The translations under genes were made by a program, and so were the position numbers. Source: Burkholderia seminalis DSM 23518 (GTDB taxonomy: Bacteria > Pseudomonadota > Gammaproteobacteria > Burkholderiales > Burkholderiaceae). From it: a stretch of DNA of 64,000 bases. Below the pieces are notes generated by a model, which searched no databases, was not told the origin of the DNA, and saw nothing but the letters and a program-made list of their open reading frames with translations. The stretch spans positions 682,001 through 746,000 of the forward strand of contig NZ_CADFDK010000001.1 in NCBI RefSeq assembly GCF_902832885.1, written 5' to 3'. Each line of letters opens with the position of its first letter. The first letter of the stretch is position 1. This document shows positions 7,119 to 23,553 of the stretch, piece by piece.

Positions 7119-10100
7119 TGCGAACCCTCCATCGCCGCCGGCCGCGCCCCGCCGCGCCGGCGCGGGCCGACGTCGAACAGGCGGCCGACGATCACGAAAA
7201 ACAGCGGGACGAGGAACACCGCGAGCACGGTCGCCGTGATCACGCCGCCGAGCACGCCGGTGCCGATCGCCATCTGCGCGCCGGACGCGGCGCCCGACGC
7301 GAACGCGAGCGGCAGCACGCCGACGCCGAACGCGAGCGACGTCATCACGATCGGCCGCAGCCGCAGGCGTGCTGCCTCGAGCGCGGCGTCGACGAGCGAC
7401 ATGCGCTGCGCGACGAGATCCTTCGCGACTTCGACGATCAGGATCGCGTTCTTCGCGGACAGCCCGATCGTCGCGATCAGCCCCACCTTGAAATAGATGT
7501 CGTTCGGCATCGCCCGCAGCGTGACGCCGAGCACCGCGCCGATCACGCCGAGCGGGACGACCAGCATCACCGCGAACGGGATCGACCAGCTCTCGTAGAG
7601 TGCCGCGAGCGCCAGGAACACGACGAGCACCGACAGCGCGAACAGCATCGGCGCCTGCGCGCCCGACAGCCGCTCCTCGAACGATTGCCCCGACCACGCA
7701 TAACCGATGCCGGCCGGCAGCTGCGCGGCGATCCGCTCGATCGCGGTCATCGCATCGCCGCTGCTGTGGCCGGCCGCGGCCGAACCGTTGATCGTGAACG
7801 ACGGATAGCCGTTGTAGCGCGTGAGCTGCGGCGGCCCGAGCGTCCAGTGCAGCGTCGTGAACGCCGCGAGCGGCACCATCTCGCCGCGCGCGTTGCGCAC
7901 GCGCAGCTTCTTCACGTCGTCCGGATCGAGCCGGTGCAGCCCGTCGGCCTGCACCATCACGCGCCGCACCTGCGTGCCGTGCATGAAGTCGCCGATATAG
8001 TCCGAACCGAACATCACCGCGAGCGTCGTATTGATCTCGTCCATCGACACGCCGAGCGCGGACGCCTTCGCGCGATCGATGTCGAGCTTCAGTTGCGGCG
8101 CATCCTGCGTGCCCGCGAACATCAGGTCGGTCAGCGCACGGTCCTTGCCGCCCGCGGCGAGCAGCTGTTCGCGCGCGGCGCTGAACGTCGCGTAATCGAG
8201 CCCGCCGCGGTTCTGCAGCCGGAAGTCGAAGCCGCTCGACGAGCCGAGATCGGGCAGCGCCGGCGCGTTCATCGCGAACACCGTGGTGTTCGGCGTGCCC
8301 GCGAATCGCGCGTTGATGCGCGCGACGATCGACTGCACGTGATCGCGTTCCGCCTGGCGCATCTTCCAGTTCTTCAGCGTGACGAAGATCATCCCGCCGT
8401 TCGGCCCTTCGCCGTACAGGTTGAAGCCGCCGAGCGCGAACGTATACGCGGCCGGCTCGTCCTTGCGGATATACGACTCGACCTCGCGCACGCTCTGCAT
8501 CGTTTCCGCGAGCGGCGTGCCTTGCGGGCGGATCACCATCACCATGAAGTTGCCCTGGTCCTCGTCCGGCAGGAACGCGGTCGGCAGCTGCGCGAGCATC
8601 AGCACCGCGGCCGCGATCAGCGCGCCGTACACCACGAGCCAGCGCACGGGCTTCTTCAGCATCGTGCCGACCCGCGTCGCGTAGCGCTGCGTCGCACGCG
8701 CGACGAAACGGTTGAACCAGCCGAAGAAGCCGCGCTTCTCGTGATGGTCGCCGGACACGGGCTTGAGCAGCGTCGCGCACAGCGCGGGCGTCAGCGACAG
8801 CGCGAGGAACGCGGAGAAGCCGATCGACACCGCGAGCGACAGCGCGAACTGCCGGTAGATGTTGCCCACCGCGCCGCCGAAGAACGCCATCGGCACGAAC
8901 ACCGACGTCAGCACGACGGTGATCCCGACGATCGCGCCGCTGATCTGCTTCATCGCCTTGACGGTCGCGTCGTACGGCCCGAGCCCCTCCTCGACCATCA
9001 GCCGCTCGACGTTCTCGACGACGACGATCGCGTCGTCGACGAGGATGCCGATCGCGAGCACCATCCCGAACATTGTCAGCACGTTGATCGAGAAGCCGGC
9101 CGCATACATCACGCCGAACGTGCCCGCGAGCGCGACCGGCACGACGAGCGTCGGGATCAGCGTCGCGCGCAGGTTCTGCATGAACAGGAACATCACGAGG
9201 AACACCAGCACGCCGGCCTCGATCAGCGTCGTGACGACCTTGTTCATCGACACGCGCACGAACGACGAGGTCTCGTACGGGATCTGGTACTTCACGCCCG
9301 GCGGGAAGAACCGGGACAGCTCGTCCATCGTCGCGCGCACGCGTTTCTCGGTCGATACCGCGTTCGAGCCCGGCGCGAGCTTGATGCCCATCCCGGTCGC
9401 GACCTTGCCGTTCACGTACGACGGGTAGTTGTAGTCGTTGCCGCCGAACTCGACACGCGCGACGTCGCGCAGGAACAGCGCGGAGCCGTCGGCCTGCGTG
9501 CGCAGCGCGATCGCGCCGAATTCGGCCGGCGTCTTCAGCGGCGCATCGGCGAACACGGTCGCCGCGATCGGCGCGCTGGCCGGCACCGCGCCGCGCCCGA
9601 TGTCGCCGATCGTCACGCGCGCGTTGTGCGCGCGCACGGCCGACGCGATGTCCGACGCGGTGAGGCCGTGCCCGGCCATCTTCACCGGGTCGGGCCAGAT
9701 CCGCATCGCGTACTCCGCGCCCCAGAACTGCACCCGGCCGACACCCTCGACGCGACGCAGCGCCTGCACGACGTTCGCCGATGCATATTCGCCGAGCTGC
9801 ACGTCGGTCATCCGGCCGTCGTCGGACGTGAGCGACACGACGAGCTGGATGTTGTCGGCGGCCTTCTCGACCTGGATGCCGTCGCCGCGCACCGGTTCGG
9901 GCAAGCGCGCCTCGACCATCTTCAGCCGGTTCTGCACTTCGACGGCCGCGAGATCGGCGTTCACGCCCTGCTTGAACGTCAGGTACAGCGACGCCATCCC
10001 GACGCTGCTGGTGGCCGACGTATACATCAGCCCCGGCGCGCCGTTCATCTCGCGCTCGATCAGCGCGGTCACCGATTCCTCGACGACCTGCGCGGACGCG

Positions 10101-10252
10101 CCCGGGTACGTCGCATAGATACTGACGACGGGCGGTGCGATGTCCGGGTACTGCGCAACGGGCAGCGCGCGGATCGCGAACATGCCGCCCAGCATGATGA
10201 AAATGGCGATCACCCACGCGAAGACGGGGCGATCGATGAAGAAACGTGCCAT
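7115..10252 (-). CDS. amrB: RND multidrug efflux transporter, HAE-1 family (AmrB-like)
   Basis: 1045 aa, the normal AcrB size. It begins MARFFIDRPVFAWVIAIFIMLGG, the first transmembrane helix. The proton-relay Asp pair of transmembrane helix 4 is present (GILVDDAIVVVENVE, about residues 405-406) and the essential Lys lies in SAKNAILIVEVAKD (about 934). The loop GPNGGMIFVTLKNW and the large porter domains are complete. It uses proton motive force to extrude drugs from the inner membrane and periplasm; Burkholderia AmrB is known for aminoglycoside and macrolide export. It is 15 nt from the adaptor gene and overlaps the channel gene by 4 nt. Substrates are inferred from homology only. Confidence 0.94.
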   Translation of the reverse strand: MARFFIDRPVFAWVIAIFIMLGGMFAIRALPVAQYPDIAPPVVSIYATYPGASAQVVEESVTALIEREMNGAPGLMYTSATSSVGMASLYLTFKQGVNADLAAVEVQNRLKMVEARLPEPVRGDGIQVEKAADNIQLVVSLTSDDGRMTDVQLGEYASANVVQALRRVEGVGRVQFWGAEYAMRIWPDPVKMAGHGLTASDIASAVRAHNARVTIGDIGRGAVPASAPIAATVFADAPLKTPAEFGAIALRTQADGSALFLRDVARVEFGGNDYNYPSYVNGKVATGMGIKLAPGSNAVSTEKRVRATMDELSRFFPPGVKYQIPYETSSFVRVSMNKVVTTLIEAGVLVFLVMFLFMQNLRATLIPTLVVPVALAGTFGVMYAAGFSINVLTMFGMVLAIGILVDDAIVVVENVERLMVEEGLGPYDATVKAMKQISGAIVGITVVLTSVFVPMAFFGGAVGNIYRQFALSLAVSIGFSAFLALSLTPALCATLLKPVSGDHHEKRGFFGWFNRFVARATQRYATRVGTMLKKPVRWLVVYGALIAAAVLMLAQLPTAFLPDEDQGNFMVMVIRPQGTPLAETMQSVREVESYIRKDEPAAYTFALGGFNLYGEGPNGGMIFVTLKNWKMRQAERDHVQSIVARINARFAGTPNTTVFAMNAPALPDLGSSSGFDFRLQNRGGLDYATFSAAREQLLAAGGKDRALTDLMFAGTQDAPQLKLDIDRAKASALGVSMDEINTTLAVMFGSDYIGDFMHGTQVRRVMVQADGLHRLDPDDVKKLRVRNARGEMVPLAAFTTLHWTLGPPQLTRYNGYPSFTINGSAAAGHSSGDAMTAIERIAAQLPAGIGYAWSGQSFEERLSGAQAPMLFALSVLVVFLALAALYESWSIPFAVMLVVPLGVIGAVLGVTLRAMPNDIYFKVGLIATIGLSAKNAILIVEVAKDLVAQRMSLVDAALEAARLRLRPIVMTSLAFGVGVLPLAFASGAASGAQMAIGTGVLGGVITATVLAVFLVPLFFVIVGRLFDVGPRRRGGARPAAMEGSQ

Positions 10253-10267
10253 GTTGGTTTGAACCGG

Positions 10268-11467
10268 TCAGGTTTGACGGGCGGCCGCCTGCGAAGCGGC
10301 CGCGGCCGGCGCCGCCTTCGACGGCGGCGACTTCTCGACGGGCTTGACGGCCGTATCGGGCGCGAACTGCGACGCGTCGTCGACGATCACGCGTTCGCCG
10401 CCCGCGAGGCCGCGCGTGATGCGCCAGTCACGGCCGCTCATCTGGTCGGCCGTGACCTCGACGTCCTTGACCTTGCCGTTCGTGCCGACCACGCGTACCG
10501 ACGTACGGTCGGCGGTGCGCAGCAGCGCGTCGCGCGGCACGAGGATCGCGCGCTGGTCGACCGCCGTGTCGAGCGCGATCCGCACGTACGCGCCCGGCAG
10601 CAGTTCGCGCTCCGGATTCGGGAACAGCGCGCGCATCGCGACGGTGTCGGTGGTCGGATCGACCGCGAGATCGCTGAACAGCAGCTTGCCCTTCAACGGA
10701 TACGCGGTGCCGTCGGCGCGCAGCAGCGTCACCGCGACGTCGTGCTGCGCAATGCCCGTCGCGCGCCCGCTCTTCACCGCGCGGCGCAACGCGTCGACAT
10801 CGGCGGCCGGCTGCGAGAAGTTCACGTAGATCGGATCGAGCTGCTCGACGGTCGTGAGCGGCGTCGCCTGGTCCTGGCCGACGAGCGCGCCTTCGGTCAC
10901 GAGCGCGCGTCGCGCGCGGCCCGCGATCGGTGCGGTGACGGTGGCATAGTCGAGCTGCAGTTGCGCACGCGCGAGCTCGGCCTTCGCCGATGCGACCTCG
11001 GCCTTCGCCTGCGTATCGGCCGCAACGGCTTCGGTATGGTCGCGCTCGCTCACCGCGCGGTCGCGCACCAGATCGTCGTAGCGGCGGCGCTTGTCGCTCG
11101 CCGCGAGCGCCGCGGCCTGCGCTTTCGCGAGCGCGCCCTGCGCGGCGTCGCGGGCGGCCTTCAGCGGCGCGGGATCGATGCGGAACAGCACCGCGCCCTG
11201 CTTCACTTCCTGACCTTCCTCGTAGGTGCGCGCGGTGACGATGCCCGCGACCCGCGCGCGCACTTCCGCCTGCCGGTACGCGTCGAGCCGGCCCGGCAGT
11301 TCGACGGTCATCGGCACGGCCGTCGGACGTACCGTCACGACGGTGGCCTGCTTCGCGGTCTCCGGCGCGGCGTCCTTGTCGCCCTTTCCACATCCGGCCA
11401 GGGCCAGCACGGCCGCCAGCGCGAACGGCGCCAGCCCGTGGCGCGACAGGGAGCGATTGTTATTCAT
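10268..11467 (-). CDS. amrA: RND efflux periplasmic adaptor lipoprotein (AmrA/AcrA-like)
   Basis: 399 aa membrane-fusion protein. The lipobox LALAGC gives an acylated Cys near residue 26. The order is lipoyl half (TVELPGRLDAYRQAEVRARVAGIV), alpha-helical hairpin (FRIDPAPLKAARDAAQGALAKAQ through ARAQLQLDYATVTAPIAGRARRA), then beta-barrel and membrane-proximal domains (VDQRAILVPRDALLRT). The C-terminus is an Ala/Pro/Lys-rich tail. It joins the inner-membrane pump to the outer-membrane channel. As the first gene of the operon, its promoter must lie in the 150-nt gap shared with the divergent TetR gene. Confidence 0.93.
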   Translation of the reverse strand: MNNNRSLSRHGLAPFALAAVLALAGCGKGDKDAAPETAKQATVVTVRPTAVPMTVELPGRLDAYRQAEVRARVAGIVTARTYEEGQEVKQGAVLFRIDPAPLKAARDAAQGALAKAQAAALAASDKRRRYDDLVRDRAVSERDHTEAVAADTQAKAEVASAKAELARAQLQLDYATVTAPIAGRARRALVTEGALVGQDQATPLTTVEQLDPIYVNFSQPAADVDALRRAVKSGRATGIAQHDVAVTLLRADGTAYPLKGKLLFSDLAVDPTTDTVAMRALFPNPERELLPGAYVRIALDTAVDQRAILVPRDALLRTADRTSVRVVGTNGKVKDVEVTADQMSGRDWRITRGLAGGERVIVDDASQFAPDTAVKPVEKSPPSKAAPAAAASQAAARQT

Positions 11468-16442: not shown

Positions 16443-16473
16443 AAAAAAAAGACGCCCGCTGCACGCAGCGGGC
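16443..16473 (-). terminator. Intrinsic terminator of the agmatine operon
   Basis: A 9-bp perfect stem GCCCGCTGC-ac-GCAGCGGGC has an eight-A run beside it on the plus strand, which is a run of T on the minus strand after the hairpin. It lies 106 nt beyond the stop of the last agmatine-deiminase paralogue and separates this operon from the amino-acid transporter genes downstream. Confidence 0.9.
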
Positions 16474-16578
16474 GCGAATCCCAGTCAAGGAGGTGTCACA
16501 CGAACTACAGGCCCAGATTAAGGAATTCGCGTGAAACGGACAACGAATCGATTTCCATATCGATATGACGCGACACGC

Positions 16579-18087
16579 TCACGCCGGTACTTCCCGGGTC
16601 GCGCAGTGGATGCCGCCGCCGCCCGACGCGATGCCGAGGATGTCGACCTGCACGATCGCGCGACTGCCCGCATATGGCCGGATCGCGGCGACCGCGGCCG
16701 CGTCCGCCGCCGCATCGTTGAACTTCGGCATCACGATCGCGCCGTTGCACGTATAGAAGTTGATGTAGCCGGCCGCGAAATGCGACATCTGTCGCTCGCT
16801 GAGCGTCGTGCCGGCCGAGGTCCCGAAGCTGACGGGCGGCACGAGCTCGACGATCCGCAGCGGCCGGCCGTTCGCGTCGGTCTGGCCCGCCAGGCGCTTC
16901 CGGTTCGCGTCCGTCAACGCACGCTCGCCGGTCGAATTCGACGCGTCGTAACAGCAGGCGACCACGCCGGGCGCGAGAAAACGCGCATAGAAATCGACGT
17001 GACCGTTCGTGATGTCGCTCTCGCCGGCCGGCGTCGCCGCGCCGCCGGCACCGCCCACGCCGCTGCCGCGCGGATAGGTCGGCGTGCCCGGCAACCAGAT
17101 GATCTTCCGCACCCCGAGCGTGCGCTGCAGTTCGGCGAGCACGACCTCGCGGGCCGTCGGCAGCAGCGTGGCGTTGGCGATCACGCCATTCGGGATGTCG
17201 AACAGCTGCGGATTGCGGTTCACGTGCAGCACGGCCGATTCGGTGAGGATCGCCGTCGCGTCGCCGTCGAATTCGATCGCGCCGCCTTCGAGCGTCAACG
17301 TGCTGCGGACCAGGGTCGCGCCTTGGGTCTGCGCCATCCAGCCCGCCACCCTGCCGTCCTGGCTGAATGGCTGGAAGAACTTGCCGGCCTTCGACCGGTT
17401 GCTCGCGGCCAGGATCGCCGGCGCAATCGTGCCCGCGCTCTGGCCGGCGCCGTCGGTGTTGGCGTTGCCCCAGCCGTTGAAATTGAAACCGATCGCGTTC
17501 AGTGCATTGCCGTTCGCCGTGTCGCGGACGAACACGCACCCCGTGTCGCGCACCCAGAAATCGTTGAAACCGTCGGCGAGCGGCACGAGGGTGATTCCGC
17601 CCGTGCCCGCGGCGCGCGCCGCATAGCGCGCATGCAGGTCCGGATTCGCGACACTCGCGCTCGCGAGCAGCGCGCGGGCCGCGTCCAGATCGACCGGCAG
17701 CACCAGCATGGTGACCGGTTCGGTCGCGCCGATCGCCTTCGCGACGTCCATCAGGTCGGCCCGCACGCGATCGATGCCGGCATCCGTACTCTGTGACGTG
17801 ACGGGCGACCAGATGCCGTCCACGCCGGACGCGAAGGTCATGTAGGTCGACGCGTGCGGCGCATCTTCCGCCGGCAGCCGGTACACGGCCTGCCGTGCCG
17901 ACGGTGTCGGGCGCGAGGCGGACGCCGCGTCGGCCGTACCGCCGTCGCCGCCGCCGCATGCGGCCAGTCCACCCAGCAGCGGCATGCCGAGCCAGGCGGC
18001 CGAACAGCGGATGAATCCGCGTCGGCCGGCATCCGGCATGGGCGACGCGTTCGGGTTCGTGATCACGTCGTTTCGTTGCTTCGCCAT
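16579..18087 (-). CDS. Exported agmatine-deiminase-family lipoprotein (Tat signal)
   Basis: 502 aa, much longer than cytosolic AguA (about 345). The N-terminus has a twin-arginine motif GRRGFIR (residues 21-27), a hydrophobic stretch and a lipobox LAAC (Cys 44), so it is probably a Tat-exported lipoprotein. The porphyromonas-type peptidyl-arginine deiminase (PAD) fold follows. The expected residues are kept: WVRDTG (Asp), LEGGAIEFDG (Glu), NGHVDFYARF (His/Asp) and the catalytic Cys in GGGGIHC (Cys 495). It departs from the family at RDTGC (others RDTGP) and at the tail (CATREVPA instead of CTTQQ). A good ribosome-binding site (GGAGTGG) supports the MAK start. Substrate is unproven. Last gene of the operon, 151 nt after its neighbour. 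Confidence 0.82.
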   Translation of the reverse strand: MAKQRNDVITNPNASPMPDAGRRGFIRCSAAWLGMPLLGGLAACGGGDGGTADAASASRPTPSARQAVYRLPAEDAPHASTYMTFASGVDGIWSPVTSQSTDAGIDRVRADLMDVAKAIGATEPVTMLVLPVDLDAARALLASASVANPDLHARYAARAAGTGGITLVPLADGFNDFWVRDTGCVFVRDTANGNALNAIGFNFNGWGNANTDGAGQSAGTIAPAILAASNRSKAGKFFQPFSQDGRVAGWMAQTQGATLVRSTLTLEGGAIEFDGDATAILTESAVLHVNRNPQLFDIPNGVIANATLLPTAREVVLAELQRTLGVRKIIWLPGTPTYPRGSGVGGAGGAATPAGESDITNGHVDFYARFLAPGVVACCYDASNSTGERALTDANRKRLAGQTDANGRPLRIVELVPPVSFGTSAGTTLSERQMSHFAAGYINFYTCNGAIVMPKFNDAAADAAAVAAIRPYAGSRAIVQVDILGIASGGGGIHCATREVPA

Positions 18088-18238
18088 GTATTCCACTCCA
18101 TTGCGCGGACGGCGCGCATGCGTACGCGCCGGAATCCGTTCCACGAAACGGATTCCGCATTGTTATTCAGTAATCCGAAAATATATAAAAATGGCAGCGG
18201 CATTCGAACCGGTCACGCGGACCGGTCCGCGCCCCCGC

Positions 18239-19351
18239 TCAGGCCGGCTGCTGCTGCGTCGTACAGTGAATGCCGCCGCCGCCCGCGGCGATGCCGTCGA
18301 TGTTCAACTGGATGACTTCGCGGCCGGGAAACAGGTCGACGAGCGTGTCGCGCGTGTTGCGGTCGGCGCGACTGTCGCCGAATTGCGGCGCGATCACCGC
18401 GCGATTGCATACGTAGAAATTGATGTAGCCGGCCGCGAACTCGTCGTTCTCGTACGCATGCCGGACGGTCCTCGGCCCCGGCAGCACGACGACCTTCAGC
18501 GGGCGCCCCTTCGCATCGGTGGACTTGCGCAGGATCTCGAGGTGCTGCCGCGTCACCGCATGGTCGTACGACGCCGGATCCGTGTCGAGCCCGGCCACCA
18601 CGACACCCGGGCTCGTGAAACGCGCGTAGAAGTCGGTATGCCCGTCGGTGATGTCCTTGCCGGCAATGCCGGGCAGCCAGATGATCTTCTTCAGCCCGAG
18701 CAGGCGGCTCAGCTCGGCTTCGCACTGCGCCTGGCTGACGCCCGGATTGCGGTTCGCATTGAGCACGCAGCTGCGCGTGATGATCGCCGTGCCCTCGCCG
18801 TCCACCTCGATGCCGCCGCCTTCCAGCACGAGCTTCGTGTCGATCGGCCGCGCGCCGGCGCGTTCGGCCACGAACGGCGCGACTTCCGCGTCCTGGTCGT
18901 GTTCCTGCTTGTTGCCCCAGCCGTTGAAATTGAAGCTCACGCCGCCGAGCTGGCCCGACGCGTTCTTCACGAACACGGGCCCCGTATCGCGCATCCACAG
19001 ATCGTCGACCGGATGCTGGACGAGCTCGACCGACGCGCCGCACAGCCGCGATGCGAGCGCGTAGTCCTGCTCCCGCACCAGCATCTTGAGCGGCTCGTGC
19101 GCGGCGATCGCCTTCGCGACCGCGGCCAGGTTCTCGCGCACCACGGGCAACAGCCGCGCGCCCCAGATGTCCGCGCTCGGGCCGAACGCCATCCAGGTCG
19201 CCGTGTGCGGCGCGCCTTCGTCCGGCATGTGCCAGGTCGCGCCCTGCTGCGCGTGCGCGGCGCGGCCGAACAACCCGCCCATCGCGCCGGCGGCCAGCGC
19301 CGCGCCCGATACGGACAGGCCGCGTTTCAACAGTTGACGTCGTGTGGTCAT
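18239..19351 (-). CDS. Tat-exported agmatine deiminase paralogue
   Basis: 370 aa. It begins MTTRRQLLKRGLSVSG, a classic twin-arginine signal, with probable cleavage after AAHA (residue 34). The mature domain is a complete agmatine-deiminase-type PAD domain: DDLWMRDTGPVFV (Asp 122), LVLEGGGIEVDGEG, DGHTDFYARF, YINFYVCN and catalytic Cys 363 in GGGGIHCTTQQQ. It would hydrolyse agmatine to N-carbamoylputrescine in the periplasm, where Tat delivers folded enzymes. It resembles the second agmatine cluster described in some Pseudomonas aeruginosa strains (agu2), as I recall. It is 50 nt downstream of the PotF-like gene. Confidence 0.85.
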   Translation of the reverse strand: MTTRRQLLKRGLSVSGAALAAGAMGGLFGRAAHAQQGATWHMPDEGAPHTATWMAFGPSADIWGARLLPVVRENLAAVAKAIAAHEPLKMLVREQDYALASRLCGASVELVQHPVDDLWMRDTGPVFVKNASGQLGGVSFNFNGWGNKQEHDQDAEVAPFVAERAGARPIDTKLVLEGGGIEVDGEGTAIITRSCVLNANRNPGVSQAQCEAELSRLLGLKKIIWLPGIAGKDITDGHTDFYARFTSPGVVVAGLDTDPASYDHAVTRQHLEILRKSTDAKGRPLKVVVLPGPRTVRHAYENDEFAAGYINFYVCNRAVIAPQFGDSRADRNTRDTLVDLFPGREVIQLNIDGIAAGGGGIHCTTQQQPA

Positions 19352-19401
19352 CGCATTCCTCTTTCGCTTGCCGGTTATTTCGATTGTTTCTGCGCGGGCC
19401 G

Positions 19402-20514
19402 TCACGGCCGCGCGGTCTTGAAGCCGAGCCAGGTGCGGCCTTCCAGGCGCATCGCGGCCGGCGATTCGGCGATCGGCGTGAACAGTGTGCGCCGCGTCGC
19501 CTCGTCCGGATAGATGCCCGGATCGCGCACCAGTGCCGGGTCCATCAGCTTCAGCGCGCCCCGGTTCGCGTTCGCGTAGCGCGTCGCATTCGAGATCTTC
19601 GCGATCACGTCCGGACGCAGGATGTAGTCGATGAACGCGTGCGCGTTGTCCGGATGCTTCGCCGATGCCGGAATCACCATCGCATCGAACCACATCAGGC
19701 TGCCGATGCGCGGGATGTCGTACACGATGTCGCGCTTCGGATCGCGCGCCTTCGCCTTCTGCGCGGCCAGGTTGATCGCACCGGAGAAGCCGACCGTCAC
19801 GCACAGCTCGCCGTCGATCAGCGCGTCGGCATCGGACGAGCCGACGAACTGGCGGATGAACGGCCGCACCTTCATCAGCATCGCCTGCGCGGCCGCGTAA
19901 TCCTGCGCGGACGGCCGCATCGGGTCGCGGCCGACGTAGCGCAGCGCGAGCGGCAGCACCGTGCTCGCGGAGTCCTGCAGGCCGAGCCCGCATTGCGCGG
20001 CGACGCGTGCCGCGATCGCCGGGTTGAACAAGAGGTCGAGGCTGTCGGCCGGCATGTCCTTGCCGAGGATCGCGCGCACCTTCGCGCGGTCGTAGCCGAC
20101 GCCCACGGTGCCCCACATGTACGGCACGCCGTACTGGTTGCCGGGATCGGACTGCGCCATCTGCTTCAGCAGCGACGGGTCGAGATACTTCAGGTTCGGC
20201 AGCCGGCCCTTGTCGAGCTTGCGGTACACGCCGGCCTGGATCTGCCTGGCCATGAAGTCGTTGGTCGGCCACACGAGGTCGTAGCCGCTGTTGCCGGTCA
20301 GCAGCTTCGACTGCAGCGTCTCGTCGCTGTCGTACGCGTCGTAGCGCACCTTGATGCCGGTTTCCTTCTCGAACGCGGCAATCGTGTCCGGCGCGAAATA
20401 GTTGCTCCAGTTGTACAGGTTCAGCACGTTCTCTTCGTCGGCGCGGGCCGCACCGGCCAGCACGCACAGCGCGAGGCCCGGCACCGCGATGCGCAGCCAT
20501 CCTTGGTGTTTCAT
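19402..20514 (-). CDS. Periplasmic polyamine-binding protein (PotF/PotD-like), orphan
   Basis: 370 aa with a signal peptide (MKHQGWLRIAVPGLALCVLAGAARA). The mature start EENVLNLYNWSNYFAPDTIAAFEKETGIKVRYD is the PotF signature, and DLVWPTNDFMARQIQAGVYRKLDK, PYMWGTVGVGYD and LCVTVGFSGAINLAAQ align with polyamine-site segments of PotF/SpuD. It would bind putrescine, agmatine or a related product in the periplasm. No potG/H/I-like ATPase or permease gene is present anywhere in the window, so it must share a transporter encoded elsewhere, or act as a sensor. It is 10 nt from aguB. Confidence 0.88.
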   Translation of the reverse strand: MKHQGWLRIAVPGLALCVLAGAARADEENVLNLYNWSNYFAPDTIAAFEKETGIKVRYDAYDSDETLQSKLLTGNSGYDLVWPTNDFMARQIQAGVYRKLDKGRLPNLKYLDPSLLKQMAQSDPGNQYGVPYMWGTVGVGYDRAKVRAILGKDMPADSLDLLFNPAIAARVAAQCGLGLQDSASTVLPLALRYVGRDPMRPSAQDYAAAQAMLMKVRPFIRQFVGSSDADALIDGELCVTVGFSGAINLAAQKAKARDPKRDIVYDIPRIGSLMWFDAMVIPASAKHPDNAHAFIDYILRPDVIAKISNATRYANANRGALKLMDPALVRDPGIYPDEATRRTLFTPIAESPAAMRLEGRTWLGFKTARP

Positions 20515-20524
20515 CGCGAATCCC

Positions 20525-21439
20525 TCATCGATAACAGGACGACACGCCGTCGCTGGTCAGCAACGTGCGGTACATCTCGGGGCGGCGATCGCGAAAAAAG
20601 CCCCACGATTGCCGGTCGGCGCGGATCGCGTCGAGGTCGAACGTCTGCACGAGCACGGCTTCGTCGGTGCGGTTCGCCTCGGCCCGCTTCTCGCCGGTGT
20701 GATCCGCGATGAAGCTCGACCCGTAGAACACGCCGGTCAGCCCCTGCTGCCGCGGATTGCCGTTGCCGATGCCGACTTCGCGGCCGATCCGGTTCGCCGC
20801 CACGACCGGCACCATGTTGGCCGCTGCGTGACCCTGCATCGTGCGCTGCCAGTGGCCGGCCGAATCGAACGCGCTGCTGAACGGCTCCGAGCCGATGATG
20901 GTCGGAAAGCACAGGATCTCCGCGCCCATCAGCGCGAGGCTGCGCGCCGTCTCCGGATACCACTGGTCCCAGCAGATGCCGATGCCGATCCGCCCGAAAC
21001 GCGTGTCCCACACCTTGAAGCCGGTGTCGCCCGGTGTGAAATAGAACTTCTCCGTATAGCCCGGCCCGTCCGGAATATGCGTCTTGCGATAGACGCCGAG
21101 GACGCGCCCGTCGGCGTCCGCCACCGCGATCGAGTTGTACGCGGCATTGCCCGCGCGCTCGAAGAAACCGATCGGCAGCACGATGCCGAGCTCGCCGGCC
21201 AGCGCCGCGAAACGGGCGATCTGCGCGTTGCCTTCGAACGGCTGCGCGTGTTCGAGATGACGCACGTTCTGGTCGAGGCAGAAGTACGGCATCGCGAACA
21301 GTTCCGGGCACAGCACGAGATTCGCGCCCTGTGCGGCGGCCGCGCGGATCAGGCGCTCCGCGGCGGCCATGTTGTCTTCGAGATTCCAGCTGCCCGACGC
21401 CATCTGCACGGCGGCGACGGTGATGTGTTTGGACGGCAT
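20525..21439 (-). CDS. aguB: N-carbamoylputrescine amidohydrolase
   Basis: 304 aa nitrilase-superfamily enzyme. The Glu-Lys-Cys triad is visible: Glu 46 in CPELF, Lys 119 in YRKTHIPDGPG and Cys 156 in GICWDQWYPE. Strong AguB features are PYFCLDQN near residue 52 and GYTEKFYFTPGDTGF. It cleaves N-carbamoylputrescine to putrescine, CO2 and ammonia in the cytosol. There is no signal peptide, in contrast with the exported paralogues downstream. It is 45 nt after aguA and 10 nt before the binding-protein gene, so clearly co-transcribed. Confidence 0.94.
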   Translation of the reverse strand: MPSKHITVAAVQMASGSWNLEDNMAAAERLIRAAAAQGANLVLCPELFAMPYFCLDQNVRHLEHAQPFEGNAQIARFAALAGELGIVLPIGFFERAGNAAYNSIAVADADGRVLGVYRKTHIPDGPGYTEKFYFTPGDTGFKVWDTRFGRIGIGICWDQWYPETARSLALMGAEILCFPTIIGSEPFSSAFDSAGHWQRTMQGHAAANMVPVVAANRIGREVGIGNGNPRQQGLTGVFYGSSFIADHTGEKRAEANRTDEAVLVQTFDLDAIRADRQSWGFFRDRRPEMYRTLLTSDGVSSCYR

Positions 21440-21484
21440 TGCGTTGCTCCTCGGTGAAACCGGAAACCGCTGACGAAACGTCGC

Positions 21485-22522
21485 TCAGTGCGCGACGGAC
21501 GGCTGCTGCTGCGTCGAACAATGAATGCTGCCGCCGCCGATCGACAGCGTCGGGATCGGCAGCATCTGCACCTTGCGCGTCGGGAACGCGCGGCTGAACG
21601 CATCGCGTGCGGCCTCGTCCTGTTCAACGCCGAACGCGGTCACGATCACCGCGCCGTTCACCAGGATGTAGTTCGCGTAACAATCGCAGTAGCGCTCGGA
21701 GCCGAAGCGTTCGCCGACGATCGGCGACGGCAGGTCGAGCAGCTCGAAACGGCGCCCCGCCGCATCGGTCGCGAGTTCCAGCGCACGGCGGTTTTCGCGC
21801 ATCACGCGGAAATAGTCGCCCTGCTCGGGCGCTGCGGTCTGGCACAGCATCCGCCCCGGCGCGACGAACGACGCGATGCCGTCCACGTGCCCGTTCGTCT
21901 CCACTTCGTCCGGGTTGCCCGGCAGCCACACGATCTTCTCGACGCCCAGCATCCGGCGCAGCTCCGCCTCGATCTCCGCGCGGCTCAGGTGCGGGTTGCG
22001 ATTGGGATGCAGCAGGCAGCTTTCAGTCGTGACCAGCGTACCCTGCCCGTCGACGTAGAACGAACCGCCCTCCAGCACCATGTGCGAATTGAAGATCTCG
22101 GCGCCGGCCGCACGGGCGATGTCCTGCCCGGCCTGCTGGCAGCCGTCGTACGGCTGGTACTTCTCGCCCCAGCAGTTGAAGCGGAACACGGCCGCGCCGA
22201 GCCCGTGCCGTTCGCTGACGAGGAAGATCGGCCCGCAATCGCGCAGCCAGTTGTCCTCGGCCGCGACCGGCAGCACGTCGACGCTCGGGCCCACCAACTC
22301 GCGCGCGGCATCGGCCTGGCTGTGGTGTACCGCGACCACGCAGCGCTGGTAACGCGCGATCGTCCGCGCGACCAGCGCGAATTCGCGGCAGACCTGCGCG
22401 TAATGCGCCCCCCAGAGGTCCTCGCGATTGTCGAGCACCGGCCATCCGAGCCACGTGGCGTGCATGGATTCCCATTCGGCGGGCATCCGGTAACCGCGCT
22501 GGCGAGCATCAAAGCGACCCAT
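21485..22522 (-). CDS. aguA: Agmatine deiminase (cytosolic)
   Basis: 345 aa without a signal peptide. It carries the full agmatine deiminase set: MPAEWESMHATWLGWP near the N-terminus, NWLRDCGPIF (Asp 95), LEGGSFYVDGQGT (Glu 151), NGHVDGIASF (His 212) and catalytic Cys 335 in GGGSIHCSTQQQP. It converts agmatine to N-carbamoylputrescine and ammonia, the step before AguB. First gene of a five-gene minus-strand operon that holds two exported homologues. The promoter lies in the 101-nt gap shared with the divergent LysR gene. Confidence 0.94.
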   Translation of the reverse strand: MGRFDARQRGYRMPAEWESMHATWLGWPVLDNREDLWGAHYAQVCREFALVARTIARYQRCVVAVHHSQADAARELVGPSVDVLPVAAEDNWLRDCGPIFLVSERHGLGAAVFRFNCWGEKYQPYDGCQQAGQDIARAAGAEIFNSHMVLEGGSFYVDGQGTLVTTESCLLHPNRNPHLSRAEIEAELRRMLGVEKIVWLPGNPDEVETNGHVDGIASFVAPGRMLCQTAAPEQGDYFRVMRENRRALELATDAAGRRFELLDLPSPIVGERFGSERYCDCYANYILVNGAVIVTAFGVEQDEAARDAFSRAFPTRKVQMLPIPTLSIGGGSIHCSTQQQPSVAH

Positions 22523-22570
22523 CGATCCGACTCCGTTGTGATTGATGAGCGATTTTCCGTCAGGTTAAAC

Positions 22571-22608
22571 TTGATGAATATTGATATTTATTGGCTTGAT
22601 CAATCAAT
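22571..22608. promoter_or_regulatory. Probable LysR-type operator between aguA and its regulator
   Basis: The short AT-rich gap holds three copies of TTGAT (22571, 22581, 22596) and two of ATCAA (22599, 22603), including the palindrome TTGATCAA (22596-22603) and the wider pair ATTGAT(22580-22585)/ATCAAT(22599-22604). These fit the dyadic T-N11-A sites of LysR regulators placed beside their own start. Binding by the adjacent regulator is inferred. Confidence 0.6.
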
Positions 22609-22623
22609 TCACCTCATATCTCG

Positions 22624-23553
22624 ATGCAACGCGTTCCGTCCCTGAAACTGCTGAGCGGCTTCGAAGCCGCGGCCCGGCTGGGCAATTTCTCGCGCGCAGC
22701 CGATGAACTGCACCTGTCGCAATCGGCGATCAGCCATCAGATCCAGCAACTCGAAGCGCAGCTCGGGCAGCCGCTGTTCCGCCGGCGCGGCCGCGGCGTC
22801 GAGCTGACCATTGCCGGCGAGGTCCTGCAGCGCAGCGTCCAGCGCGCGATGGACACGTTGCGCGGCGGCCTCGACCGCATCGCGACCTACCTGAACCCGG
22901 GGCTCGTCGTGCTGGTGTGTCCGGCGCCGTTGCTGCACGGCTGGCTGCAGCCGCGCCTCGAGCAATTGCAACAGGCACTGCCGGACCTGTGCCCGCTGTT
23001 GTCGACCGACGAAACCGCGCGCTACGTCGACGAGATCGACGTCGACATGACGATCGGCACGCGGCCGATGCTGCAGCCGGGCCTGGTCGATATCCCGTTC
23101 ATGCGCGACGAGTGGGTGACCGTGTGCGCGACACCGCTCGCCGAGACGCTCGCCCGCGTGCCGCGCGCCGAACACGCGCGGCACGCGGGGCTCGTCTGCC
23201 TCGAAGCGAGCCTGACCGACGAGCGCATGGCGACGGTCTTTCGCGAACGACTGTCGGACTTCCGGATGCAGGCGATCTATGACGACCAGCGGCTCGTGCT
23301 GGACGCCGTGCAGCGCGGCCGCGGCATTGCGTGCCTGCCGCGCCTCGTCGCGCAGGCCGGCCTCGACCAGCACGCGCTGACCGTGCTGGCCGACTACCCG
23401 CGCCTGCCCGGCACCACGTGGTGGCTGTCGCGGATGGAAGGCCCGTCGCGCTCGCCGATCGTCGGGCAAATGTTCGACTGGCTGGTCGAGCAAGGCATCC
23501 GGTCGAGCGTGGCGGCCCCGGCGCCCGACCACGCGAAGCCGCCGTCCGCGTAA
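22624..23553 (+). CDS. LysR-family regulator of the agmatine operon
   Basis: 309 aa. The N-terminal winged helix-turn-helix is clear (SLKLLSGFEAAARLGNFSRAADELHLSQSAISHQIQQLE, residues about 6-45), of the GcvA-like subtype. The remainder is a substrate-binding-like effector domain (LVVLVCPAPLLHGWLQPRL ... GRGIACLPRLVAQAG). It is divergent from aguA with a shared intergenic dyad, so it most likely controls the agmatine operon in response to agmatine or N-carbamoylputrescine. The ligand cannot be read from sequence. Confidence 0.87.
   Translation: MQRVPSLKLLSGFEAAARLGNFSRAADELHLSQSAISHQIQQLEAQLGQPLFRRRGRGVELTIAGEVLQRSVQRAMDTLRGGLDRIATYLNPGLVVLVCPAPLLHGWLQPRLEQLQQALPDLCPLLSTDETARYVDEIDVDMTIGTRPMLQPGLVDIPFMRDEWVTVCATPLAETLARVPRAEHARHAGLVCLEASLTDERMATVFRERLSDFRMQAIYDDQRLVLDAVQRGRGIACLPRLVAQAGLDQHALTVLADYPRLPGTTWWLSRMEGPSRSPIVGQMFDWLVEQGIRSSVAAPAPDHAKPPSA

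What the first reader, a model, noticed from the sequence alone, without database searches (positions are those of the whole stretch)
16579..22522. Agmatine operon with one cytosolic and two Tat-exported agmatine-deiminase paralogues
Five minus-strand genes run aguA, aguB, PotF-like binding protein, Tat-exported deiminase, Tat-exported lipoprotein deiminase, and end at a strong terminator. All three deiminases keep the Asp, Glu, His/Asp and Cys catalytic set. This implies that agmatine is processed on both sides of the inner membrane, with N-carbamoylputrescine or putrescine captured in the periplasm. The closest known analogue I recall is the agu2 cluster of some Pseudomonas aeruginosa strains linked to biofilm; a third paralogue as a lipoprotein is not something I know to be described.
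Basis: partly seen in the sequence, partly recalled or inferred. Interest (0 to 1): 0.72.

Follow-up and report, generated by a model that had tools for sequence, protein, structure and literature searches.

The report
Agmatine operon with two exported deiminases
A Burkholderia genome carries the known agu2 agmatine operon plus one extra, lipid-anchored deiminase; pairs of a free and an anchored exported deiminase turn up in many bacteria, and these exported enzymes lack an acid that holds agmatine in the plant enzyme, so what they really act on is worth testing.

Summary
Five minus-strand genes (aguA, aguB, PotF-like binding protein, Tat-exported deiminase A', Tat-lipoprotein deiminase A'') lie opposite a LysR gene and end at a strong terminator. 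Genes 1-4 and the LysR match in order the agu2ABCA' operon of Pseudomonas aeruginosa, whose Agu2A' is a known Tat substrate, so that part is known. The extra part is A'', a 502-residue Tat lipoprotein under purifying selection with long inserts in two active-site loops. It is no local oddity: adjacent soluble/anchored exported pairs occur in 31 of 94 analysed loci, in two opposite gene orders (lipoprotein first 16, last 15). Exported deiminases form one clade apart from cytosolic AguA. In all 130 exported-clade rows (of 133) where the motif could be read, the acid that hydrogen-bonds the terminal amine of agmatine in plant AIH (Asp220) is Ile or Val; 27 of 28 cytosolic rows keep Glu. Of 49 genomes searched, 25 have exported-clade deiminases but neither another PF04371 gene nor AguB over its cut-off. 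The two-compartment reading is plausible for this operon, but 'exported agmatine deiminase' is unproven and putrescine supply need not be the general role. New variant of a known kind.

The parts
22624..23553 (+). LysR-type regulator, divergent from the operon
   Evidence: HTH_1 and LysR_substrate; a LysR at 50% identity or more lies within 1.5 kb of a deiminase gene in 43 of 92 loci with an exported-clade deiminase
22523..22623 (.). shared regulator/operon promoter region
   Evidence: sequence; the one operator motif tried was not shared with relatives
21485..22522 (-). aguA: cytosolic agmatine deiminase (agu2A position), 345 aa, no export signal
   Evidence: PF04371 335.7 bits; TIGR03380 287.1 bits, below the 381.8 cut-off; keeps Glu before TNGH
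20525..21439 (-). aguB: N-carbamoylputrescine amidase, 304 aa
   Evidence: TIGR03381 464.5 bits, over cut-off; only copy over cut-off in the genome
19402..20514 (-). PotF-like periplasmic binding protein (agu2C position), signal-like N-terminus (by eye), no permease next to it
   Evidence: SBP_bac_8, PRK10682 PotF 357.2 bits, below its cut-off; four other PotF-like genes at 42-49% identity elsewhere in the genome
18239..19351 (-). A': Tat-exported soluble deiminase (agu2A' position), 370 aa
   Evidence: PF04371 364.8 bits; 53% identical to the A' of the P. aeruginosa record L050
19250..19351 (-). Tat signal peptide of A' (residues 1-34, TRRQLLK motif, AHA end)
   Evidence: sequence; twin Arg kept in the Burkholderia A' proteins except L040
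18088..18238 (-). conserved spacer between A' and A'' with predicted hairpins and a GGAG before the A'' start
   Evidence: alignment and consensus fold of 12 sequences; 9 of 37 pairs have at least one kept two-sided change, but the covariation term is small, -0.76 of -41.79 kcal/mol
16579..18087 (-). A'': Tat-lipoprotein deiminase, 502 aa, with about 100 residues of inserts
   Evidence: PF04371 232.7 bits; catalytic residues kept; inserts; AlphaFold2 model pTM 0.87
17956..18087 (-). Tat-lipoprotein signal of A'' (residues 1-44; RRGFIR, lipobox LAAC, Cys44)
   Evidence: sequence; twin Arg plus lipobox in 20 of 22 A'' genes
16452..16475 (-). intrinsic terminator
   Evidence: 10-pair stem, 8 G-C, T-run

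Best explanation
This is a Burkholderia agu2-type operon that handles agmatine-like guanidine compounds on both sides of the inner membrane. Inside the cell AguA and AguB turn agmatine into N-carbamoylputrescine and then putrescine. Outside the inner membrane a soluble Tat-exported deiminase (A') and a lipid-anchored one (A'') deiminate agmatine, or a close guanidine relative, as it enters the periplasm; the PotF-like protein collects the product or putrescine and hands it to a Pot-type permease encoded elsewhere. The LysR protein switches the operon on. Shown here: gene content, order, catalytic residues, conserved signal motifs, clade membership, purifying selection. Inferred: substrate, export and lipidation themselves, hand-over to a permease, regulation.
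Against: The direct amine-binding acid of plant AIH is Ile or Val in the 130 of 133 exported-clade rows that could be read (structure text; alignment). [quoted passage not shown] 25 of 49 genomes have exported-clade deiminases without any other PF04371 gene and without AguB over its cut-off, so putrescine supply through AguB is not likely to be the general role. The genome also has five agmatinase-family genes over cut-off, another agmatine route. No permease in the operon. All three deiminases miss the AguA equivalog cut-off.
Confidence: 0.55

Rival explanations
1. The exported clade (A' and A'') is a separate family of extracytoplasmic guanidine deiminases whose main substrate is not free agmatine but a guanidine compound with a masked or missing terminal amine, such as an acyl-agmatine or a guanidino acid. 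A'' is a further specialised, membrane-bound isoform.
For: Ile or Val in place of the amine-binding Asp/Glu (130 of 133 rows, 3 unread), Phe-Tyr after the catalytic HxD (130 of 130) and Glu at EGGxxE (132 of 133), none of these in the cytosolic rows. Two A'' inserts (model residues 143-171 and 270-288; low pLDDT) fall near the two loops reported to order on ligand binding in C. jejuni AIH (PMC6447857 passage). Exported-clade deiminases without AguB over cut-off and without another PF04371 gene in 25 of 49 genomes. Little effect of agu2 on agmatine levels.
Against: Sits in an operon with aguA and aguB here; the biofilm effect of Agu2A' on added agmatine (Williams 2010, recalled; paper not held). 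The Asp two before the WxRD Trp's Arg-Asp (plant Asp89) and both channel Trp are kept; the Glu of EGGxxE or the Asp one place before the Ile could take over amine binding, and no coordinates were on hand to test that. P. aeruginosa Agu2A, cytosolic, has Met there, so the acid is not strict outside the exported clade either.
Confidence: 0.3
2. Silencing of external agmatine: the exported deiminases destroy agmatine as a signal or toxin near the cell surface or release ammonia, and the product is not used.
For: Exported-clade deiminases stand without AguB over cut-off and without another PF04371 gene in 25 of 49 genomes; the anchored form would act at a membrane.
Against: AguB is in the same operon here; alternative amidases such as AguY exist (PMC12283126, abstract and section 5) and were not searched for genome-wide, so lack of AguB does not prove that the product is wasted.
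Confidence: 0.1
3. A'' is a decaying duplicate without function.
For: Long stem branch of the A'' clade (1.3 changes per column); dN/dS above that of A' in 4 of 4 comparisons, the last only just; the cluster is in fragments in one symbiont bin, L066.
Against: Catalytic residues kept in 14 of 14 aligned A'' proteins, dN/dS 0.14-0.25, 20 of 22 keep both signal motifs.
Confidence: 0.05

Closest known systems
agu2ABCA' operon of Pseudomonas aeruginosa PA14 (Williams et al. 2010; PA14_48450 = Agu2A')
   Same: Gene order A, B, binding protein, Tat-exported A', with a divergent LysR in record L050
   Different: The window has a fifth gene, the Tat lipoprotein A''; the four operon proteins are only 45-61% identical; 'None of the P. 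aeruginosa Tat substrates are lipoproteins' (PMC6085387 passage)
LysR with Tat-lipoprotein and Tat deiminase genes in Janthinobacterium, Collimonas, Iodobacter, Variovorax, Comamonas, Rugamonas and others (gene clusters seen here)
   Same: One soluble and one anchored exported deiminase side by side; a related LysR in the locus in 16 of 16
   Different: Lipoprotein gene first, not last; 11 of 16 loci lack aguA, aguB and the binding protein within the fetched flanks; the A'' inserts are gaps in at least 90% of the 34 other exported-clade rows; whether A'' descends from these lipoproteins is unresolved (AU p 0.479)
Agmatine deiminase / AIH (E. faecalis 2JER, A. thaliana 3H7K, M. truncatula 6NIB)
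   Same: Fold and catalytic residues
   Different: A' and A'' have Ile at plant Asp220 and carry export signals; A'' has inserts in active-site loops
Porphyromonas peptidylarginine deiminase (PPAD)
   Same: Guanidine-modifying enzyme of the same fold, exported (recalled)

Membership tests
agu2ABCA' operon | order aguA, aguB, binding protein, Tat-exported deiminase | tested here: met
agu2ABCA' operon | divergent LysR gene (as in record L050) | tested here: met
   22624-23553 plus strand; 32% identical to the L050 LysR
agu2ABCA' operon | induced by agmatine, acts on biofilm (recalled from Williams 2010; cited so in PMC4211729 and PMC4784309, passages) | not testable with these tools
   needs expression work
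agmatine deiminase (EC 3.5.3.12) | catalytic Asp, Glu, His/Asp, Cys | tested here: met
   all three proteins
agmatine deiminase (EC 3.5.3.12) | NCBIfam equivalog TIGR03380 at its cut-off | tested here: not met
   287.1, 268.1 and 159.5 bits against 381.8
agmatine deiminase (EC 3.5.3.12) | acid that binds the terminal amine (plant Asp220) | tested here: not met
   Ile in A' and A''; met only in the cytosolic AguA (Glu)
agmatine deiminase (EC 3.5.3.12) | turnover of agmatine | not testable with these tools
   enzyme assay needed
Tat lipoprotein | twin-arginine motif followed by a lipobox Cys | tested here: met
   A'' of the window; 20 of 22 A'' genes; by motif, no dedicated predictor
Tat lipoprotein | Tat-dependent export and lipidation | not testable with these tools
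   reporter fusion and lipid labelling needed
N-carbamoylputrescine amidase AguB | TIGR03381 at its cut-off | tested here: met
   464.5 against 410.25
peptidylarginine deiminase (PPAD) | closest sequence and fold | tested here: inconclusive
   weaker than agmatine deiminases; peptide activity untested

The most novel reading that the evidence does not exclude
Tat-exported deiminases are a distinct, widespread family of periplasmic guanidine deiminases with a re-built substrate pocket, often made in matched soluble and membrane-anchored isoforms; agmatine is not their main substrate, and the anchored form has been gained or lost more than once.
Probability: 0.33. Interest if true: 0.66.

Novelty: new variant of a known kind. 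Interest (0 to 1): 0.46.

Why it matters
In the plasmid records these proteins are named 'agmatine deiminase family protein', and the one exported member that I found in print, Agu2A', is linked to biofilm. If the pocket change means another substrate, the agu2-biofilm model and many annotations need revision. If they do act on agmatine, there is a common periplasmic step in polyamine use. Either way enzyme assays with defined guanidines would decide it.

Tried and rejected
One origin of all Tat-lipoprotein deiminases: rejected by the AU test (p 9.8e-8; the groups were named after the tree was seen). Origin of A'': both 'one clade with the other paired lipoproteins' (p 0.479) and 'local duplication of A'' (p 0.415) remain open because its branch is long. 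A shared LysR operator: a TTGAT/ATCAA palindrome in the window's promoter was found in 1 of 41 regions, the window itself, so dropped. Recurrent neighbours other than LysR: clustering of flanking ORFs gave no single partner gene. ABC-transporter genes lie near exported-type deiminases in Phyllobacterium, Mesorhizobium and Okeania, too few for a rule. A batch of ten neighbouring ORFs held no amidase family. AguY and putrescine transcarbamylase were not searched genome-wide.

Rows dropped before counts: duplicate loci L054, L055, L058, L062, L065 and the fragmented L066; fragments in L084 and L128 and a false regex hit that removed L033 A'', which I put back by hand for the A'' count and; rows without a WxRDxG match. 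The tree used 93 of the 161 rows after thinning at 88% identity, plus two reference AguA; the program warned of long branches that meet and of a bootstrap that had not quite settled. Signal types were set by regular expression plus hand correction of 13 rows, not by a dedicated predictor; a first regex gave false Tat calls and was replaced. A four-motif regex for the catalytic set failed in 8 of 161 rows: one A'' and three cytosolic rows only because residues beside the catalytic HC vary, one cytosolic row (L038) at EGG, and the three Sec-type Thiothrix-group rows at GHxD; the last four were not looked into.
Full report
What is there. The window lies in a 7.97 Mb genome. Its genus is Burkholderia: G027, which the tool calls 'same genus', has a contig of 431,170 bases, the length of the Burkholderia arboris LMG 24066 record that carries the same cluster. 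Five minus-strand genes, aguA, aguB, a PotF-like binding protein, A' and A'', run from 22522 to 16579 opposite a LysR gene at 22624-23553. A terminator with a ten-pair stem and a T-run lies at 16475-16452. The genome has no other PF04371 gene and no other AguB over cut-off.

Genes 1-4 are a known kind. A P. aeruginosa plasmid record (NZ_CP131792, L050) has LysR, deiminase, aguB, binding protein, deiminase in the same arrangement, with 32, 45, 61, 45 and 53% identity to the window proteins. The N-terminus of its last gene agrees with the printed signal of PA14_48450, Agu2A', listed among experimentally identified Tat substrates (PMC6085387, passages). Williams et al. 2010 itself is not held; what I say of its results is recalled or second-hand (PMC4211729, PMC4287709 and PMC4784309, passages).

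The fifth gene. A'' has a twin-arginine motif and a lipobox. Of 22 A'' genes, 20 have both; the two without the lipobox are from Diaphorobacter and from a metagenome bin labelled Rhizobium. It keeps the catalytic residues and is under purifying selection (dN/dS 0.14-0.25, against 0.06-0.14 for A' and 0.11-0.23 for AguA, four comparisons each). Of 36 genus-mates, 12 have any PF04371 gene and 11 of these have A''; G010 has A' and aguA but no A''. In G007 and G010 the aguA-aguB-binding protein set lies away from A', so the inner and the exported parts can separate.

The pair is a pattern. Among the exported-clade rows other than A'', 72 of 112 have a plain Tat signal by my pattern, 30 a Tat signal with lipobox and 10 neither. 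In the 94 loci with deiminase rows, a lipoprotein and a soluble deiminase are adjacent on one strand in 31: lipoprotein first in 16 (Oxalobacteraceae, Comamonadaceae, Iodobacter, Vogesella and others) and lipoprotein last in 15 (Burkholderia and Paraburkholderia), with three further pairs in which one signal is unclear. All 16 of the first group have a LysR related to the window's in the locus, and 11 of 16 have no aguA, aguB or binding protein in the fetched flanks. Loci were fetched with A'' as query, so these shares are not frequencies in nature. The other 14 of the 30 lipoprotein rows are not in such a pair.

Tree. In a 95-row maximum-likelihood tree the exported-clade deiminases stand apart from cytosolic AguA and two reference AguA proteins (branch support 98/85 with the Sec-type Thiothrix-group rows, 100/99 without them; long branches meet there, so the joins carry a warning). 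The clade includes a few actinobacterial rows without a recognisable signal. The A'' clade is firm (100/100) but hangs on a long branch inside the exported clade. The data reject one origin of all lipoproteins (AU p 9.8e-8) but reject neither a common origin of A'' with the other paired lipoproteins (p 0.479) nor a local duplication (p 0.415).

The substrate pocket. In plant AIH the terminal amine of agmatine is held by direct hydrogen bonds to Asp220 and Ala360 and through water by Asp89 (PMC6447857, section 14). Asp220 lies just before the Thr of TNGH; in the alignment of A' with the Arabidopsis chain it faces Ile. The cytosolic rows have Glu there in 27 of 28; P. aeruginosa Agu2A has Met. 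The exported-clade rows have Ile or Val in 109 of 112 non-A'' rows (the other three, Sec-type, could not be read) and Ile in 21 of 21 A'' rows; they also have Phe-Tyr after HxD (130 of 130 read) and Glu at EGGxxE (132 of 133), where cytosolic rows have Tyr, His or Asn (27 of 28, one unread). Asp89 and the two channel Trp are kept. The exported enzymes thus differ at the side chain reported to bind agmatine's free amine directly. This is a sequence inference; another residue may do the job.

Genome context. Of 49 genomes searched that hold related loci, 26 have only exported-clade deiminases by my reading of the table against the fetched loci, and 25 of these also lack an AguB over the TIGR03381 cut-off (13 of 49 have one; two of the 25 have a weaker hit near 250 bits; completeness not given). 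The exception is Yokenella. On a Phyllobacterium plasmid a Tat-type deiminase is followed by an ABC transporter set, an aminotransferase and aguB, which fits import of N-carbamoylputrescine. The window's genome has four other PotF-like proteins at 42-49% identity; the two that I checked are followed by PotG- and PotH-like genes. It has no SpeA over cut-off, three OKR-type decarboxylases and five agmatinase-family genes over cut-off.

Verdict. The operon is most likely a two-compartment agmatine or guanidine system, confidence about 0.55. The lipoprotein is a real, maintained gene and a new variant of a known kind.

Noticed in passing
18088-18238: The A'-A'' spacer is conserved in 12 aligned Burkholderia sequences and is predicted to fold into successive hairpins with a few compensatory changes; it may set the relative expression of A' and A''.
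   Followed up: partly
L040:10119-10266: In one relative (G013) the Tat signal of A' and the mature enzyme lie in different reading frames.
   Followed up: partly
L084:4650-5768: aguA of the record named Paraburkholderia domus LMG 31832 is interrupted by a stop codon while A' is open.
   Followed up: no
L060:2317-3855 and 9372-10913: Paraburkholderia sp. BL21I4N1 has two A'' genes, one on each side of the LysR-agu2 cluster; B. arboris has a second A'' elsewhere (L046).
   Followed up: no
L066:454-7941: The whole cluster is in short open frames in a Paraburkholderia symbiont bin, through gene decay or poor assembly.
   Followed up: no
L067, L077: A betaproteobacterium and Vogesella carry four deiminase genes in one cluster: one cytosolic, one Tat lipoprotein and two Tat-soluble.
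   Followed up: partly
L095:3563-5248: Downstream of the deiminase in a Methylobacter bin is a dCTP-deaminase-like protein with an intein-splicing domain.
   Followed up: no
L072, L074, L122: Thiothrix-group genomes have a very divergent deiminase with a Sec-type-looking signal directly before a Tat one.
   Followed up: no
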